Shown here piece by piece: positions 9,018-50,302 of a DNA stretch of 64,000 nt. A program made the translations under genes and the position numbers. The notes below the pieces were generated by a model. It saw only the letters and a program-made list of their open reading frames with translations. It did no database searches and had not been told where the DNA came from. Origin of the DNA: Evansella cellulosilytica DSM 2522 (GTDB taxonomy: Bacteria > Bacillota > Bacilli > Bacillales > Salisediminibacteriaceae); contig NC_014829.1 of NCBI RefSeq assembly GCF_000177235.2, positions 2,232,001-2,296,000 of the forward strand, in the 5' to 3' direction. Numbering within the stretch: position 1 is the stretch's first letter; each line of letters opens with the position of its first letter.

Positions 9018-9998
9018 TTATCCTTCCCATACTTGTTTGTTTATTAGAGTAGGTGGCTTACATCCAGTGAGTGCTTTTTTTATATTTTCTGCAGCTAGTT
9101 TAGACATATTATATTCACACTCAATTGTAGAAGATCCTATATGAGGGAGCGTAACGATATTATGTAAACGAAGTAAAGGGTTATCTTTATTTGTTGGTTC
9201 TTCTTTATATACATCAACACCGGCAGCATGAATTTCACCATCGACTAATGCATCGTATAGTGCAGCTTCATCTACATTTTTCCCTCTAGAACCATTGATG
9301 AAAATGGCAGTACTTTTCATACTTTTAAATTGTGATGCACTAATCATATTTTTAGTTTTATCTGTTGCAGGAACCATAAGGCAAACGAAGTCAGAGTTCT
9401 CTAACAGCTCATTTAGTTCACAATATGTAGCGCTATAGGTATTCTCTGCTTCTTTATTACGTGAACGGTTATGATAAAGAATATTCATCCCAAAACCGAA
9501 ATGTGCCCTTTTCGCGATAGCACTACCGATGCTACCTAAACCTATAATACCTAATGTTTTGTGATGAACATCTAAACCGTATTGCTCAGGTTGTAGCGAA
9601 ATATTCCAGTTACCTTCTTTTACGAATGAATCGAGTTCGGGGATTCTTCTTGCAGTCGCTATAAGTAAGCCAAAAATTGCATCGGCTGTTGTATCATCCA
9701 ACACCCCTGGTGTGTTCGTTGCCATAATGTTTCTTTTTGTCATTTCTTCTATATCTAAATTATCATAACCAACGGATACGTTTGAAACGACTTTTAATTT
9801 GGGGGCATGCTGAAGGAGTTGTTTATTTACCTTTAATGCTAGGCCTATTATTCCATCCGCTTCCTGCAATGCATGATCAAATGCAGCGTCACCTAAATAT
9901 TCATGATTATAAAAGCAAGTAACATCAAAATCTTGTTTTAACTGTTCGACGACTCTATCATCTACTCGCATATAAGATATGATCTTCTTTTTCAACAT
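9018..9998 (-). CDS. D-isomer specific 2-hydroxyacid dehydrogenase (2-ketogluconate/glyoxylate reductase type)
   Basis: 326 residues, standard length. These NAD(P)-dependent enzymes reduce 2-keto acids such as glyoxylate, hydroxypyruvate or 2-ketogluconate. The Rossmann loop GLGSIG is at 153-158. The catalytic triad is visible as R in NGSRG, E in KEEP and H in LPHIGS, in the usual order. The spacing and sequence resemble the YvcT/GhrB group. The minus-strand ATG 9998 has AGGAGGA directly upstream. It is monocistronic. The exact substrate cannot be told. Confidence 0.88.
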   Translation of the reverse strand: MLKKKIISYMRVDDRVVEQLKQDFDVTCFYNHEYLGDAAFDHALQEADGIIGLALKVNKQLLQHAPKLKVVSNVSVGYDNLDIEEMTKRNIMATNTPGVLDDTTADAIFGLLIATARRIPELDSFVKEGNWNISLQPEQYGLDVHHKTLGIIGLGSIGSAIAKRAHFGFGMNILYHNRSRNKEAENTYSATYCELNELLENSDFVCLMVPATDKTKNMISASQFKSMKSTAIFINGSRGKNVDEAALYDALVDGEIHAAGVDVYKEEPTNKDNPLLRLHNIVTLPHIGSSTIECEYNMSKLAAENIKKALTGCKPPTLINKQVWEG

Positions 9999-10163
9999 TC
10001 ATCCTCCTTCCTATTTCATTACATAAGAACGATAACATAAAAAGCATTAATGAACCAACAGTTTAGTTCTGATAATGTGATAATGAATAAAATGTTGCAT
10101 TACGTTTACTTTTTTAAATGGACAATGAATCGTGGAAGATTTATATTATATATATTAATCGTT

Positions 10164-10191
10164 TTGTTTATTTACTATTAGTGTGTATAAT
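10164..10191 (+). promoter_or_regulatory. possible sigma-A promoter of the YkvS-like gene
   Basis: TTGTTT at 10164 and TATAAT at 10186 with a 16-base spacer, about 90 bases before the start codon. The -35 box is only a partial match. Confidence 0.4.
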
Positions 10192-10283
10192 CATAGTGGT
10201 ATTTTAAAAAGTATGATGGATAATTTTGTTTGTTATCGATTCATTATTTTGTGAAATACTGTTTATAAAAGGAGGGTTTAGGC

Positions 10284-10505
10284 ATGGAAGAACAAGACAA
10301 AGAAAAAGAAATCGAAATCGAAAAGCCCCCCGTAGAAATTGGGGAGACAGTCACGATAACTAAAGGTGAGTATAAAGGGGAAGATGCTAAAGTTATTGCT
10401 GTTTATACGAATTCAATAGCAGTAGAACTAAACAAAATGCAAAAAGATGGTACGTTAGCAAGAACCGTGTTCAGTCATAAGGAATATAAACTAAAGAAAA
10501 ATTAA
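10284..10505 (+). CDS. YkvS-like small protein (DUF2187, KOW-like)
   Basis: 73 residues. After an acidic N-terminal tail of about 17 residues, the segment IGETVTITKGEYKGEDAKVI is a KOW/SH3-like fold signature, as found in the DUF2187 family (YkvS of Bacillus subtilis). KOW folds usually bind RNA or ribosomal and transcription partners, but no function is proven here. ATG 10284 is preceded by AAAAGGAGGG. It ends with a perfect terminator and so is a single-gene unit. Confidence 0.8.
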   Translation: MEEQDKEKEIEIEKPPVEIGETVTITKGEYKGEDAKVIAVYTNSIAVELNKMQKDGTLARTVFSHKEYKLKKN

Positions 10506-25883: not shown

Positions 25884-27441
<1,558 letters not shown>

Positions 27442-30766: not shown

Positions 30767-30883
30767 GTCCAGTGACGATAGCGGAGAGGTCACACCCGTT
30801 CCCATGCCGAACACGGTAGTTAAGCTCTCAAGCGCCGATGATAGTTGGGGGTTTCCCCCTGTGAAAGTAGGACGTTGCTGGGC
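30767..30883 (+). rRNA. rrf: 5S ribosomal RNA
   Basis: About 117 bases, with the landmarks GCGGAGAGGTCACACCCG, TGCCGAACACGG and a GGGGGTTTCCCCC hairpin. The ends TCCAGTGAC and GTTGCTGGG pair to form helix I. It closes the operon. Confidence 0.95.
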
Positions 30884-30889
30884 AGATAA

Positions 30890-30918
30890 AGTCATTCTCA
30901 ATAGAGAGTGGCTTTTTT
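30890..30918 (+). terminator. rRNA operon terminator
   Basis: AGTCATTCTC pairs with GAGAGTGGCT (with G-U pairs), followed by seven T bases. Confidence 0.85.
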
Positions 30919-30954
30919 TAATTTGTTTAGGGTATGGGCTTTTGTGTACCGAAG

Positions 30955-31805
30955 GCAGGATTTGTTTTGATAAATGTAGTGAAATGAAAGAGAAGTGTTC
31001 TTTTAGGGAGGGGCGCAATGATGCGTGAAATAGTGGTGGAAATAGAATAAAGTGATCATACGAGGCCAATGACACGCGAGAAAGTAGTGGGAATGAAATA
31101 AAGTGTGTCATACGAGAGTAATGAAACATGAAATCTTAAGAAAAATAAAATAAGGTGTATCATAAGCAAGCAATGCTACCCCAAAACTAAACCGGCACTT
31201 AACAAAGGTAATCATAAGCAAGCAACGCTACCCCAAAACCACCCCCGCACTCAACGAAGGTAATCATAGGCAAGCAATGCTACCCCAAAACTAAACCGGC
31301 ACCCAACAAAGGTAATCATAAGCAAGCAATGCTGCCCGAAAAGCCAAACCTCACTCAACGAAGGTCATCATAGAGAAGCAATGCTACCCCAAAACTAAAC
31401 CGGCACTTAACAAAGGTAATCATAAGCAAGCAACGCTATCCCAAAACCACCCCCGCACTCAACGAAGGTAATCATAAGCAAGCAATGCTACCCCAAAACT
31501 AAACCGGCACTTAACAAAGGTAATCATAAGCAAGCAATGCTACCCCAAAACCACCCCCGCACTCAACGAAGGTAATCATAAGCAAGCAATGCTACCCCCA
31601 AACTAAACCGGCACCCAACAAAGGTAATCATAAGCAAGCAATGCTGCCCGAAAAGCCAAACCTCACTCAACGAAGGTCATCATAGGCAAGCTACACTACC
31701 CGAAAAACAAAAAAACAATTCACGAAGTTCATCATAGACAGACAATGCTACTTGAAAAAGCAAAAACTACTTAATGAAAGTCTTCATAGTCAAGTAACGC
31801 AGCCA
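30955..31805. repeat. tandem array with exact 52-bp period behind the rRNA operon
   Basis: The start of each unit (CATA or CATC) recurs every 52 bases at 31057, 31109, 31161, 31213, and so on to 31785, with no insertion or deletion over 14 periods. Ten central units (31161-31680) are highly alike. They share CATAAGCAAGCAATGCTACC and differ in the second half, giving three subtypes. Units at both ends are more diverged. A weaker match extends the array leftward to about 30955. Since 52 is not a multiple of three, it cannot encode a repeated peptide. No open frame, direct CRISPR-type spacer pattern or transposase is seen. Confidence 0.9.
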
Positions 31806-32270
31806 CACATATTAAAAACTTATTCTAAATAAACAGCAAATACTAACCTCATCAACTTCTAAAACCGGACGAAGTAACAATCCTAAATAATACTCTAGCT
31901 ACACTACATTTCTTTCCAATTATCATTAAACATTTAATATTTAATAACCAAAAATCATTTAAATCGTACTGTATACCCAAATAATAATTCCCGATATGTC
32001 TACAACTTAATAGCCATGTTCTAAATCATTGAAATCTCATCAAATTATTATTTTTTGCAAGCTTCATTAACCATTTAATTAAATGAAATTTAGTATTCTT
32101 TTATTTTTCACCTCAATTGACATTAGTAAGTATTCATACTCTAACACTTCTTTTCATACATATGCTGTTAATGGTTTCTGGAAGCCACTATATATAAGCT
32201 TTCAAAACACTTTTTGAACAATTATCATCAGAACTTCTTTTATGAAATCCTATTTAAGGAGAGGATATCA
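31806..32270. other. AT-rich gap without a gene
   Basis: Very A/T-rich stretch between the 52-bp array and the holin-like gene. No ORF with a ribosome site, no tRNA and no repeat is seen apart from the fading end of the array. Confidence 0.5.
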
Positions 32271-32714: not shown

Positions 32715-32835
32715 ATATAAAAGCAAGATAAGATCGAATCTTATGTAAAAAATAGGTATTTATTACATAATAGGAGTATTGACCTATGCAATACCTATTT
32801 TTTATTATATATTTATATTAAAAAGGAGGGGTTGG

Positions 32836-33984
32836 ATGTCTTCCTTCACATACGTTGGTGTAAGTACTGCAGATTCATGGGAAGTTGCTGGTAGAGAAGC
32901 GACTATTGAAGCAATGTCTTATATTACAAATGCAAATAAACCAAAAATGTTAAAGATCATGTATACCGAGGACGCAGAGCCTGATGATTATAAAGCGATC
33001 TACAAAGGTTTAAGATCTGTTTCTAATGATGTGATCGTAATTGGTGGTAGAGTTAAGTATTTGTATACCTCAAAAGGTGTTTTACATAAAGGGGTGGTAG
33101 TCGTTGCTTTAAATTGGGATGGAGAATTAATAGAACCGATTCTTTTTCACCGAGATTATGATTTAAATAAAATAGATGAGCAGTTTAACCAATCTATTAA
33201 ATCGTATCAACATGACTATGAGGTTACAATATATACGTTGTGGTCTGGTTTTAATTATATGATGAATGTTGGAGAACAGTGGTACAATACATTTGGTCCA
33301 TCAATTAATATATTTGGTGGTGGTTGTGTAGAGATTGCTATTGAAGATCAAGTATACTTTGATTATGGGGTTGCCGTTGCTTTTTTATCTAAGAAAAGGT
33401 TTGAATATGTACTTGGGCATGGTTGTCAGCCAGAAGGTCGTCCTTTAATGATAACACGTGCAGATAAACATAACATTTATGAGATAGATGGTATGAGTGC
33501 GACAGAAGTGTATGATCAGCTTTGTGATGACGTTACTGCGAAGCTTGGTAAAAAGAGGGATGAAGGTGTTGAATGGTCTTTTTCATTCGGTTATCCTACA
33601 GTAAATGGGGAGTATGTTCTTCAGGAGCCTGTAGCTATTAATAGAGAGAATGATAGTATTCAAATGTTTTTAGAAATTCCAGATAATAGTGTTGTTAGAA
33701 TTTTAGTTGCGAGGTCAGATACTATTTTTAACAAGTCTGTACAATTAGTAGATGAGTATATGAATAAATTCGATAACACACCTAATTTTAATTTAGTGAT
33801 AAACTGTGTTAGCCGAATGGACGCCTTAGACTACCAATTTCGTGAAAAAGAATTAGCGTTGTTTAAAGAGCATTTAGGCGATAATCATTTTGTCGGTTTC
33901 TCATCTATTGGAGAATTAGGAATTCCTAAAGGTATGCCTATATATAGTCATCAAAAGACGCTAATTATTTTTGGTGTTTCGTAA
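32836..33984 (+). CDS. FIST-domain sensory protein
   Basis: 382 residues covering FIST_N (about 20-195) and FIST_C (about 205-350). FIST is a predicted small-ligand sensor domain seen in signalling proteins, thought to bind amino acids. Typical elements are VGVSTADSW at the N-terminus, VIVIGGRVKYLYT, and the C-terminal NCVSRMDAL, VGFSSIGELGI and HQKTLIIFG. There is no output domain, so the partner gene directly downstream probably provides it. ATG 32836 follows AAAGGAGGG. The GGDEF gene begins 16 bases after the stop, so the two are an operon. Confidence 0.85.
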   Translation: MSSFTYVGVSTADSWEVAGREATIEAMSYITNANKPKMLKIMYTEDAEPDDYKAIYKGLRSVSNDVIVIGGRVKYLYTSKGVLHKGVVVVALNWDGELIEPILFHRDYDLNKIDEQFNQSIKSYQHDYEVTIYTLWSGFNYMMNVGEQWYNTFGPSINIFGGGCVEIAIEDQVYFDYGVAVAFLSKKRFEYVLGHGCQPEGRPLMITRADKHNIYEIDGMSATEVYDQLCDDVTAKLGKKRDEGVEWSFSFGYPTVNGEYVLQEPVAINRENDSIQMFLEIPDNSVVRILVARSDTIFNKSVQLVDEYMNKFDNTPNFNLVINCVSRMDALDYQFREKELALFKEHLGDNHFVGFSSIGELGIPKGMPIYSHQKTLIIFGVS

Positions 33985-34000
33985 TAAAGGGGGTATAAAT

Positions 34001-35008
34001 TTGAATGAAGTCCCTAGTAATTTACTTCAAGCGTTAGAAAATGATATAACTCAAATCGCAATATTATATGATATATCTATGATCGTTGGTATTAATGATC
34101 GTGATCACTTAATGTCTTTAATATTAGATAAAGCAACGAGAACATTAAGTAGTGATATGGCTGTTGTTATTTTAAAGAATAATCATGTCTTGGAAGCCGT
34201 TTGTTCGAGAGGAGTTTTAATTAGCGAAGTAGATCGTTTACTTGGAGATGATTCTCTTCAATCAGACATTATTAACTTATGTGATAATGTACAAAACTCT
34301 CATTTCGTAAAGGAATCAACGGACGGTATTGACTTTGCTGGAACGAAGTATGCGACTTTATTGTTTCAGCCTATTAAATCCCAAGGTCATGTTTTAGGAG
34401 TCATTATTATTGGACGCCTCTTGAAATCAGGCTTCAATAGAGAAGAGCTTAAACTTTTCTCCTTATTAGCACAAAAGGCTTATGTTTCATTAGAAAATAT
34501 TAAGTTAAGAGAAGAAGTATATTTACAAAGCATTACAGATGCTTTAACAGGATTATATAATTTTCGATATATAGAAAGTAAAATGAGTAAGACTCTACAA
34601 GATGCTGAAGAACGACAGCAAAATTTAACGCTTGTTCTTATGGACTTTTTACACTTTAAGGATGTAAACGACAGGCTTGGTCACAAAATGGGGAATCATG
34701 TTTTAGCGCAGTTTGGCAGCTTTTTAAGAGAGCAATTTCCAGAAAATGATTGCTGTAGGATAGGTGGGGATGAATTTTTAATCGTATTTGTAGATAAAAC
34801 TCTCGAGGAAGTAAAGAGAGAGTGTGAGAAGATTAAATCATTTGTTCACCGTAAAAGTGTGAAAGATATAATATCAAGAGGTATAAATTTTGGTGTTGAT
34901 GTTGGTTTTTCTCGTTATCGAGAAGATGGATATAATTACGGAGAGCTGTACAAAGTTGCTGATGCACGCATGTATGAAGATAAAGCGAAAAATAAGCGTG
35001 AGCAATAA
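34001..35008 (+). CDS. GAF-GGDEF diguanylate cyclase
   Basis: 335 residues. Residues about 25-170 form a GAF-like sensor domain and about 175-333 a GGDEF domain. The start motif DALTGLYN and the active-site loop GGDEF (255-259) are intact, so synthesis of c-di-GMP from two GTP is expected. No RxxD product-inhibition site is seen in front of the loop. TTG 34001 is the best start, seven bases after AAGGGGGT. It follows the FIST gene closely, which suggests that the FIST protein feeds a signal to this enzyme. Confidence 0.88.
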   Translation: MNEVPSNLLQALENDITQIAILYDISMIVGINDRDHLMSLILDKATRTLSSDMAVVILKNNHVLEAVCSRGVLISEVDRLLGDDSLQSDIINLCDNVQNSHFVKESTDGIDFAGTKYATLLFQPIKSQGHVLGVIIIGRLLKSGFNREELKLFSLLAQKAYVSLENIKLREEVYLQSITDALTGLYNFRYIESKMSKTLQDAEERQQNLTLVLMDFLHFKDVNDRLGHKMGNHVLAQFGSFLREQFPENDCCRIGGDEFLIVFVDKTLEEVKRECEKIKSFVHRKSVKDIISRGINFGVDVGFSRYREDGYNYGELYKVADARMYEDKAKNKREQ

Positions 35009-48203: not shown

Positions 48204-48280
48204 TGGCGGGACCGTGTGGGAATCGAACCCACCGAGCTTGGCACGCAAGCCCCTGAAGGTTTTGAAGACCTCGGCAAACA
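48204..48280 (-). tRNA. 3' part of a tRNA-Sec (anticodon UCA), probable prophage attL
   Basis: Read on the minus strand it has an anticodon arm GAGGT-CTTCAAA-ACCTT with anticodon UCA (48263-48265), a long variable arm (GGGGCTTG...CAAGCTC), the T-arm GTGGG-TTCGATT-CCCAC, an eight-base acceptor strand ACGGTCCC, discriminator G and an encoded CCA. The eight-base acceptor, long variable arm, G73 and UCA are typical of selenocysteine tRNA. The 5' acceptor strand and the 5' half of the D-arm are missing: to the right the sequence turns into unrelated DNA. This is what phage integration into a tRNA 3' end leaves on one side. Confidence 0.75.
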
Positions 48281-48507
48281 CCCCAGGTTTAAAAACCCAC
48301 TCATATCAAGGGTTTATAGGGTTGTCCCAATGGACTTATTAAAAATTACCCTATGGTTTAGCTACCTATTGACTAGTATTATAAGTCCTTATTCGTTAAC
48401 TATCAACAAAAAACTAGATTTCATTTCATTTTGATAGATTTTTTTACTCTTTTTGGAAATGAGTTGGAGTATAATTAGCTTATATTAATATAGGGGAGAG
48501 GGTAAAA

Positions 48508-50146: not shown

Positions 50147-50302
50147 ATTCATTCCTAAATAGAGTGAAAATAACACTAGTGTCAAAATTATTCCGAATAG
50201 GGGAGAAATTAACACTAGGGGGTGTCATAAAAATTCCAAATTGGAATGAAAATGACACTGGTGGGGTGTTATAGATATTCCAAATCGGGGAGAAAATTGC
50301 AC
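50140..50302. repeat. four 37-bp palindromic repeats (possible iterons or origin)
   Basis: Units start at 50140, 50179, 50222 and 50266, each exactly 37 bases long. All begin GTGTYA, end in a matching ACAC element (AACAC, GACAC or GCAC), and carry ATTCC at unit position 12-16 with a GGGGA or GGAAT partner. Unit 3 has an additional perfect dyad ATTCCAAATTGGAAT. Spacers are 2, 6 and 7 bases. The A/T-rich 50303-50422 follows, then the gene at 50435. The layout fits a replication origin or a multi-operator control site. Confidence 0.8.

What the first reader, a model, noticed from the sequence alone, without database searches (positions are those of the whole stretch)
30955..31805. Exact 52-bp tandem array directly behind an rRNA operon
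Seen in sequence: a unit boundary recurs every 52 bases from 31057 to 31785 without a single indel, even in strongly diverged end units, and weaker matches extend it to the left. Strict length conservation with free base change suggests selection on spacing. 52 bp is close to five helical turns at 10.4 bp per turn, so all units face the same side of the DNA (inference). It is not coding and not a CRISPR. Possible roles: a phased binding site for a nucleoid protein, a barrier or insulator at the end of the highly transcribed rrn operon, or a recombination-prone satellite.
Basis: partly seen in the sequence, partly recalled or inferred. Interest (0 to 1): 0.82.

Follow-up and report, generated by a model that had tools for sequence, protein, structure and literature searches.

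The report
Exact 52-base repeat arrays in Bacillales
The repeat array behind this ribosomal RNA operon is real and belongs to a large, apparently undescribed class of intergenic arrays in Bacillus-type bacteria whose repeat length stays near 52 base pairs, about five turns of the DNA helix, even where the sequence is very different, which suggests that the shape and spacing of the DNA matter more than its letters.

Summary
Window 31038-31817 holds 15 units, and all 14 spacings are exactly 52 bp. The claimed leftward extension is not supported. The array is not rrn-specific: it follows the 7 of 10 rrn operons that end at 5S, and 19 more arrays of the family lie elsewhere in the genome. The family recurs in many Bacillales genera with changed sequence. 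Within it each unit carries a dyad whose arms covary. In a 2-Mb grid sample of five genomes taken without reference to sequence, 31 of 36 non-coding-type tandem-repeat rows had a period of 51-53 bp or a multiple, with mostly unrelated sequences. A/T content tends to oscillate at 10.4 bp (27 mutually dissimilar arrays, z 7.2), but the window's own array does not. Arrays often lie downstream of a co-directional terminator (28 of 49 loci; 5 of 49 from the other side). Best reading: a DNA-level, helically regular platform behind transcription units; wrapping by gyrase or a nucleoid protein is likely but untested. Eight aimed paper searches found no description.

The parts
25885..27439 (+). 16S rRNA
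   Evidence: Rfam RF00177
27766..30698 (+). 23S rRNA
   Evidence: Rfam RF02541
30768..30883 (+). 5S rRNA
   Evidence: Rfam RF00001
30889..30919 (+). intrinsic terminator of the rrn operon: hairpin AGTCATTCTC-AATA-GAGAGTGGCT followed by a T-run
   Evidence: read by eye from the sequence; same element behind other rrn operons of the genome
30920..31037 (+). leader between terminator and array, shared with other rrn loci of the genome; no 52-bp unit recognisable
   Evidence: BLAST alignments to other rrn loci starting at query position 1, window 30900; unit scores
31038..31141 (+). two units of left type (core TCATA-N7-AATG; close to the GTG..CAC type of other rrn arrays)
31142..31193 (+). hybrid junction unit between the two sub-types, in the same 52-bp register
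31194..31765 (+). eleven units of right type (arms GGT..ACC in most), partly ordered as 104-bp dimers; the last is diverged
31766..31817 (+). diverged terminal unit, still at exact 52-bp spacing
   Evidence: core 8 of 9

Best explanation
The array belongs to a class of intergenic tandem arrays in Bacillales in which unit length, near five helical turns (52 bp, rarely 51 or 53), and often a dyad in each unit are what is kept, not the sequence. SHOWN: the shared period across dissimilar sequences; covarying dyad arms in the core family; population-level 10.4-bp A/T phasing; polar placement downstream of a co-directional terminator-like site. INFERRED: because 52 is the smallest whole number of base pairs equal to a whole number of 10.4-bp turns, tandem copies stay in helical register, so every unit faces the same side and DNA can bend or be wrapped coherently over hundreds of bp. 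INFERRED and untested: this makes a DNA-level platform behind transcription units, for DNA gyrase wrapping or a nucleoid protein, that absorbs or pins transcription-driven supercoiling and insulates the next gene, much as BIME-2 arrays may do in E. coli.
For: Period: 351 of 398 neighbouring core spacings up to 330 bp are 52; a pattern allowing periods 37-67 matched 210 times in this genome, and the listed matches have period 52 (list cut); grid sample without sequence assumptions, 31 of 36 non-coding-type TRF rows at 51-53 bp or multiples. Core-free lag 52 in 100 of 100 arrays of at least 200 bp, though these arrays came from a finder that steps 52 +/- 2. Length constraint: 9.17 substitutions per adjacent pair, 39 of 907 pairs with a length change. 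Dyad: on 51 gapless double units the covariation score is 0.252, against 0.125 +/- 0.012 in 500 shuffles (none reach it) and at most 0.121 when slid; the top APC-MI pair, 14-38, lies on the dyad. Helical phasing: k=5 A/T power 0.095 in 27 dissimilar arrays and 0.088 in 26 core-family units, against 0.040 for genomic 52-mers, 0 of 20,000 resamples each; 41-bp arrays peak at k=4 in 3 of 4. Placement: terminator-like site upstream on the array strand in 28 of 49 independent loci, the other three positions 4-6 of 49. Precedent (passages read, PMC6379681): the E. coli gyrase motif has phased 10-bp G/C variation, gyrase cleavage sites are enriched downstream of rRNA operons and in BIME-2, and 35-52-bp fragments are thought to wrap around GyrA CTDs.
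Against: The window array has no 10.4-bp A/T signal (k=5 rank 25 of 26 for the whole array; 23 and 26 for its two parts), and among 24 own arrays only 7 rank k=5 in the top three. The in-phase curvature of the window array was top of 317 stretches, but any exactly 52-periodic sequence sums coherently, so I give that no weight. Only 15 of 33 grid arrays have a significant dyad, and the two own ones have none. When whole arms are dealt anew among all arrays the pairing excess is modest, 3.81 against 3.53 +/- 0.14. The A at both ends of the 9-nt centre of the core family is not dyad-symmetric, odd for a homodimer site. At pair 18-34 G.T (8) exceeds A.C (1), though as column composition predicts. 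No cognate protein, expression or binding data. No non-Bacillales control sample was analysed. Shared descent plus homogenisation could preserve a period without present function. The gyrase paper says that attraction of gyrase to regions downstream of transcription units seems not hard-wired in the E. coli genome, and that the BIME-2 signal does not depend on transcription.
Confidence: 0.4

Rival explanations
1. Selfish or neutral bacterial satellite: arrays arise by slippage or unequal recombination, spread and homogenise, survive in the safe space behind terminators, and keep 52 bp because they descend from an ancient 52-bp array or because the duplicating machinery has a 52-bp ruler.
For: Higher-order repeats of 104 and 156 bp; different copy number at loci with similar flanks in related strains, for example 12, 7 and 9 units in L046, L107 and L150; a same-genus genome without the array beside ileS, 189 bp between the aligned blocks in G005 against 773 bp here; patchy core family, 24 of 150 genomes; few arrays between divergent genes, 6 of 66 loci with both neighbours called.
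Against: Length stays fixed while sequence changes; A/T phasing at 10.4 bp is not expected of a neutral satellite; covarying dyad; polarity relative to the terminator.
Confidence: 0.33
2. RNA-level element: arrays are transcribed by read-through and the hairpins act in RNA (3' stability, protein binding, or processing into 52-nt units).
For: Covarying stem; invariant A...A at the ends of the 9-nt centre suggests a loop; orientation follows the upstream gene in 66 of 82 loci with an upstream gene called (related strains not merged); at pair 18-34 G.T is commoner than A.C, 8 against 1.
Against: Arrays often lie after a terminator-like site (28 of 49); at the covarying pairs 14, 16 and 17 G.T and A.C are equally frequent, 10 against 9; folding is no better on one strand (mean z -1.19 and -1.25 with RNA parameters); RNA hairpins do not need an exact DNA period; no Rfam match on arrays at the gathering score, and none convincing at a lax threshold on the window array.
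Confidence: 0.1
3. REP/BIME-type repeats mobilised by a Y1 (RAYT) transposase.
For: Imperfect palindromes, intergenic, 3' of genes, genome-specific sequence; Y1_Tnp proteins in 123 of 150 relatives.
Against: Array-bearing G114 (listed with 0 matches) and G117 (absent from the list of genomes with a match) have no Y1_Tnp; none of the 10 array-neighbour proteins that I had named by Pfam is a Y1 transposase; head-to-tail fixed period instead of variable REP spacing.
Confidence: 0.07
4. Site array for one sequence-specific DNA-binding protein (regulator, partition or nucleoid protein) with a palindromic operator every five turns.
For: Core TCATA-N7-AATG nearly invariant within the family, 18 of 104 columns at least 90% conserved (most units were found by this core); same face of the helix by spacing.
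Against: Arms vary in concert within one genome and within one array; dissimilar arrays keep the period without the core; NERD, the gene family found next to arrays in the most groups, is in 136 of 150 genomes, and of the five own NERD genes one abuts a family array.
Confidence: 0.1

Closest known systems
BIME-2 / REP arrays of enterobacteria
   Same: Intergenic, at 3' ends of transcription units, imperfect palindromic units, variable copy number, species-specific sequence; BIME-2 hold gyrase cleavage sites (PMC6379681, passages read)
   Different: Here head-to-tail with a fixed 52-bp period; REP tags not tested; no consistent Y1 transposase; sequence almost free
Minisatellites / VNTR such as mycobacterial MIRU (unit size recalled; one abstract start seen in the listing)
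   Same: Intergenic tandem units of about 50 bp with variable copy number
   Different: Here many dissimilar sequences share one period, and units of the core family carry covarying dyads
CRISPR arrays
   Same: Regular period
   Different: No spacers; units drift as a whole. CRISPR-like arrays (recognised by eye) were picked up by the pattern in G094 and G142 at 66 bp
Phased A/T sequences in gyrase sites and curved DNA
   Same: A/T or G/C content oscillating with the helical period (PMC6379681, passages; PMC3940949 and PMC3372288, start of abstract only)
   Different: Here built into exact tandem units, hundreds of bp long, behind terminator-like sites

Membership tests
REP/BIME | Palindromic unit | tested here: met
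   Covariation of the dyad in the core family; 15 of 33 grid arrays p<=0.05
REP/BIME | Intergenic, at 3' ends of genes | tested here: met
   (ORF-based)
REP/BIME | Cognate Y1 (RAYT) transposase in the genome | tested here: not met
   G114 and G117 carry array matches but show no PF01797 match
REP/BIME | Conserved GTAG or CGTC tag at one end | not tested
   Not scored; the foot of the dyad varies among arrays
CRISPR | Identical repeats separated by unrelated spacers | tested here: not met
   Adjacent units of the window array are 56-88% identical over all 52 bases
Known structured RNA | Match to an Rfam family | tested here: not met
   No array match at the gathering score in the window or in 11 of the 80 genome-contig loci; nothing convincing at E<=5
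Gyrase-binding array | Helically phased A/T content over the unit | tested here: inconclusive
   Met at population level, not met by the window array
Gyrase-binding array | Gyrase cleavage or binding in vivo | not testable with these tools
   Needs Topo-Seq or ChIP
Plasmid- or phage-borne repeat | Copies on plasmids or phages | tested here: not met
   Four array queries against plasmids: three without match, the window array with three matches at E 0.9 only; one query against phages, no match; the one IMG/VR pattern hit looks like chance on reading

The most novel reading that the evidence does not exclude
Bacillales chromosomes carry a general, sequence-independent class of intergenic arrays in which the five-helical-turn unit length itself is under selection: a bacterial counterpart of nucleosome-phased satellite DNA, serving as tracks for wrapping by gyrase or a nucleoid protein behind transcription units.
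Probability: 0.35. Interest if true: 0.9.

Novelty: new variant of a known kind. Interest (0 to 1): 0.77.

Why it matters
If right, bacterial intergenic DNA holds a widespread element class defined by geometry instead of sequence, invisible to homology searches. It would give a directly testable case for DNA-encoded supercoil management behind transcribed genes, and would explain why dissimilar tandem repeats in one bacterial order share one unit length.

Tried and rejected
Single-array or rrn-only reading: rejected, 26 arrays and 348 units in the genome. CRISPR: rejected. NERD nuclease as partner: a gene of this BLAST cluster abuts arrays in five groups (this genome, Sutcliffiella and relatives, Alkalihalobacterium, Peribacillus, MAG UBA7792; three of the proteins checked by Pfam), but the family is in 136 of 150 relatives, and of the five own genes one abuts a family array: a weak lead. 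RAYT: not required. A 5S-like RNA as a fixed part of the element: a degenerate 5S plus rrn-type terminator precedes the ileS array, but by eye no other non-rrn own array printed has one; it looks like the relic of an rrn end. Literature: eight searches aimed at such arrays and two on REP/gyrase showed no description in their listings; most subscription papers are not in the library. Curvature of the whole window array against other stretches was a flawed comparison and is not used. Rows dropped: L053/G015 (51-bp repeat) and L054 (duplicate of an own array) before and most later counts; both were still, and L053. Arrays under 200 bp were left out of the lag count, and arrays without 300 bp on both sides out of the terminator count (72 of 107 kept, merged to 49 loci). 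The genome-contig scan stopped at 80 stretches, so species counts are lower bounds. Model R1 is built on 104-column double units and is biased towards period 52; so is the array finder. The 33 grid arrays were picked by me as the 51-53-bp ones; the 33 'other' arrays are 25 of them plus 8 loci found by R1.

Full report
What is there. The window lies in a 4.68-Mb genome held as one contig, at 2,232,001-2,296,000. Behind the 5S gene (30768-30883) and its terminator (by eye) lies a tandem array of 15 units, 31038-31817, with 14 of 14 spacings of exactly 52 bp. TRF independently gives period 52, and 104 with a higher score. Two unit types share one register and are joined through a hybrid unit at 31142-31193. 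The proposed leftward extension is at background identity.

It is a genome-wide family. BLAST of window 30900-31820 against its own genome gave 117 matches at E<=10, many of them parts of the same arrays. The genome has ten 5S genes. Arrays follow seven of the ten; the other three run on into tRNA genes, read by eye, and no array was called in the 20-kb stretches around two of them (L030, L040), while the third is followed by the next rrn operon. In all, 26 arrays with 348 units were found in the fetched stretches. The pattern TCATA-N7-AATG-N{21,51}-TCATA-N7-AATG matched 210 times, its reversed control 0 times. Of 398 neighbouring core spacings up to 330 bp, 351 were 52 and 12 were 51.

It is an order-wide family with changing sequence. 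The same pattern was found in 11 of 150 relatives including this genome. Four of those are not this element: G094 and G142 are CRISPR-like at 66 bp, G015 repeats at 51 bp and G059 at 40-62 bp. A three-unit scan of genome contigs returned 80 stretches, its limit, with titles of Sutcliffiella and related Bacillus sp., Peribacillus, Alkalihalobacterium, Heyndrickxia, Siminovitchia, Ammoniphilus, Bacillus piscicola and a Bacillaceae MAG. A covariance model of 51 gapless double units matched 24 of 150 genomes in 18 of 79 genera at E<=1e-4. Of the 30 loci returned (several from the same genomes), the strongest local lag was 52 in 24 (one of them weak), 51 in three, 53 in one, and two showed no array. 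Their dyad arms differ widely, for example CGCGTTTCAT..ATGAAACGCG (same-genus G008), GGTCTTCAT..ATGAAGACC (G084) and CCAATG..CATTGG (G117).

The period is the constant. In arrays found by a finder that steps 52 +/- 2, the best lag from 30 to 80, computed without the core, was 52 in 100 of 100 arrays of at least 200 bp; adjacent units differ by 9.17 substitutions on average, while 39 of 907 pairs change length. To remove search bias I took twenty 20-kb stretches from each of five genomes (2.0 Mb), including G004, a same-genus genome negative by pattern and model. TRF gave 42 rows with period at least 25 and at least 2.8 copies after overlap removal: 31 had period 51-53 or a multiple (one array gave two rows), 5 other non-coding-type rows had 41 (three), 62 and 91, and 6 were rows in open frames with periods 27, 39, 42 or 45. 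By genome the 31 are 9 in G147, 4 in G084, 3 in G131, 13 in G004 and 2 here. Eight of the 31 lie in an open frame of at least 144 codons and could be coding. Some of the G004 arrays resemble each other. Four own-genome stretches were moved off the regular step, so arrays of the core family are under-represented there. No non-Bacillales control sample was analysed.

Dyad. On 51 double units the covariation score of the dyad is 0.252, against 0.125 +/- 0.012 in shuffles (0 of 500) and 0.121 or less in slid versions. In 67 single units, pair 14-38 has the highest APC-corrected mutual information of all pairs, and the dyad antidiagonal the largest Watson-Crick excess. Relatedness inflates such numbers. 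When whole arms are dealt anew among arrays, the count is 3.81 against 3.53 +/- 0.14 for all arrays, and 3.92 against 3.34 +/- 0.21 for this genome (8 of 2000 reach it), a more modest effect. Of 33 grid arrays, 15 have a dyad at p<=0.05. G.T and A.C mismatches are balanced at pairs 14, 16 and 17 (10 and 9), and 36.6 against 28.2 weighted over five pairs; at pair 18-34 alone they are 8 and 1. So there is no clear RNA wobble signature.

Helical phasing. Inside the unit, A/T content peaks at the fifth harmonic (10.4 bp): z 10.5 for 67 core-family units and 9.7 for 33 other arrays against shuffles. After deduplication at 62% identity over all rotations and both strands, mean power is 0.095 (27 arrays) and 0.088 (26), against 0.040 in genomic 52-mers, 0 of 20,000 resamples in each case. 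Flanking DNA shows none (0.039). Of four 41-bp arrays three peak at the fourth harmonic; of six 51-bp arrays three rank the fifth harmonic first or second. Against this: the window array has essentially no such signal, and 17 of 24 own arrays rank k=5 below third. So phasing is a trend of the class and not shown for this member. A wedge-model curvature estimate, with recalled parameters, is also raised per unit (0.743 and 0.693 against 0.525 for genomic 52-mers).

Placement. In 49 independent loci with both flanks, a terminator-like site lies within 400 bp upstream on the array strand in 28 (7 of 17 here, 21 of 32 elsewhere), upstream on the other strand in 6, downstream on the same strand in 4, and pointing in from downstream in 5. 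Of 600 random 400-bp windows from own array loci, 14.5% and 12.5% have one on the two strands. For 26 grid arrays, such sites point in from either side in 20 and away in 13. Of 82 array loci with an upstream gene called, 66 have it on the array strand; of 66 with both neighbours called, 6 lie between divergent genes (ORF-based, related strains not merged). In this genome arrays below 2.34 Mb are + in 13 of 16, and above it - in 10 of 10, which fits co-orientation with replication; the terminus was not mapped.

Position relative to rrn elsewhere. In G150, G151 and G152 the listed arrays do not directly follow the 5S genes found, but only 2, 1 and 8 were found, so the map may be incomplete; in G154 one array lies about 1.6 kb downstream of a 5S gene.

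Evolution. The array beside ileS is absent from the same-genus genome G005, where 189 bp separate the aligned blocks against 773 bp here. It is preceded by a decayed 5S-like sequence and an rrn-type terminator, so it is probably a former rrn end.

Mechanism. I favour a DNA-level platform: exact five-turn spacing keeps units on one face and lets curvature or wrapping add up over the array, and the position behind terminators is where positive supercoiling from transcription runs. Gyrase is the best-fitting candidate, because its motif has phased 10-bp composition, its cleavage sites concentrate downstream of rRNA operons and in BIME-2, and 35-52-bp pieces are thought to wrap its C-terminal domains (PMC6379681, passages). 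The same paper notes that gyrase attraction downstream of transcription units seems not hard-wired in E. coli. None of this was tested on these arrays. A neutral or selfish satellite with inherited period is the main rival.

Novelty. Eight aimed searches of the open library and two on REP and gyrase showed no description in their listings. The nearest known kind is REP/BIME; a defining feature, a cognate Y1 transposase, is absent from two array-bearing genomes, so I do not file it there.

Noticed in passing
L038 8552-8656 (genome about 2,784,551-2,784,655, minus strand): Decayed 5S rRNA-like sequence plus rrn-type terminator directly before the array beside ileS; looks like the relic of an rrn operon end.
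   Followed up: partly
window 48208-48302 (-): ARAGORN reports a selenocysteine tRNA gene; selA/selB not looked for.
   Followed up: no
L030 about 9935-10470 (genome about 1,111,934-1,112,469): Within the tRNA cluster behind an rrn operon, two tRNA starts are interrupted by short related sequences (sharing ACGAGTTGTCTCGACG) and then repeated intact, as if a small element had inserted with a long target duplication (by eye).
   Followed up: no
L051 and L062 (G059): Array with a monomer of about 20.5 bp (TTTATGAGAAAAACTT...), TRF periods 40 and 62, about two helical turns.
   Followed up: no
L166, L167, L174, L175 (G003, G004 beside ileS): The same intergenic space holds other tandem arrays of 101 and 187 bp in two same-genus genomes, a possible hot spot.
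   Followed up: no
L024 6883-7842, L115, L118, L075, L056/L090/L119/L131/L145: NERD-type genes lying within about 60 bp of an array in five groups of genomes (Pfam on three of them).
   Followed up: partly
L297 439-776 and L304 14666-14861 (own genome): Two further 52-bp arrays of this genome with other sequence and no significant dyad.
   Followed up: partly
window 50179-50297: A 43-bp repeat with 2.7 copies, not of the 52-bp class.
   Followed up: no
window 32779-35008 (+): A 401-aa ORF followed by a 345-aa ORF with a GGDEF-like motif by eye; not searched against any library.
   Followed up: no
L091 6765-7074 (Bacillus sp. CHD6a): Array with a long palindrome whose two halves occur separately in other arrays of the same group: left arm AACATTGTCCTCAT in one type, its complement on the right in another.
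   Followed up: partly
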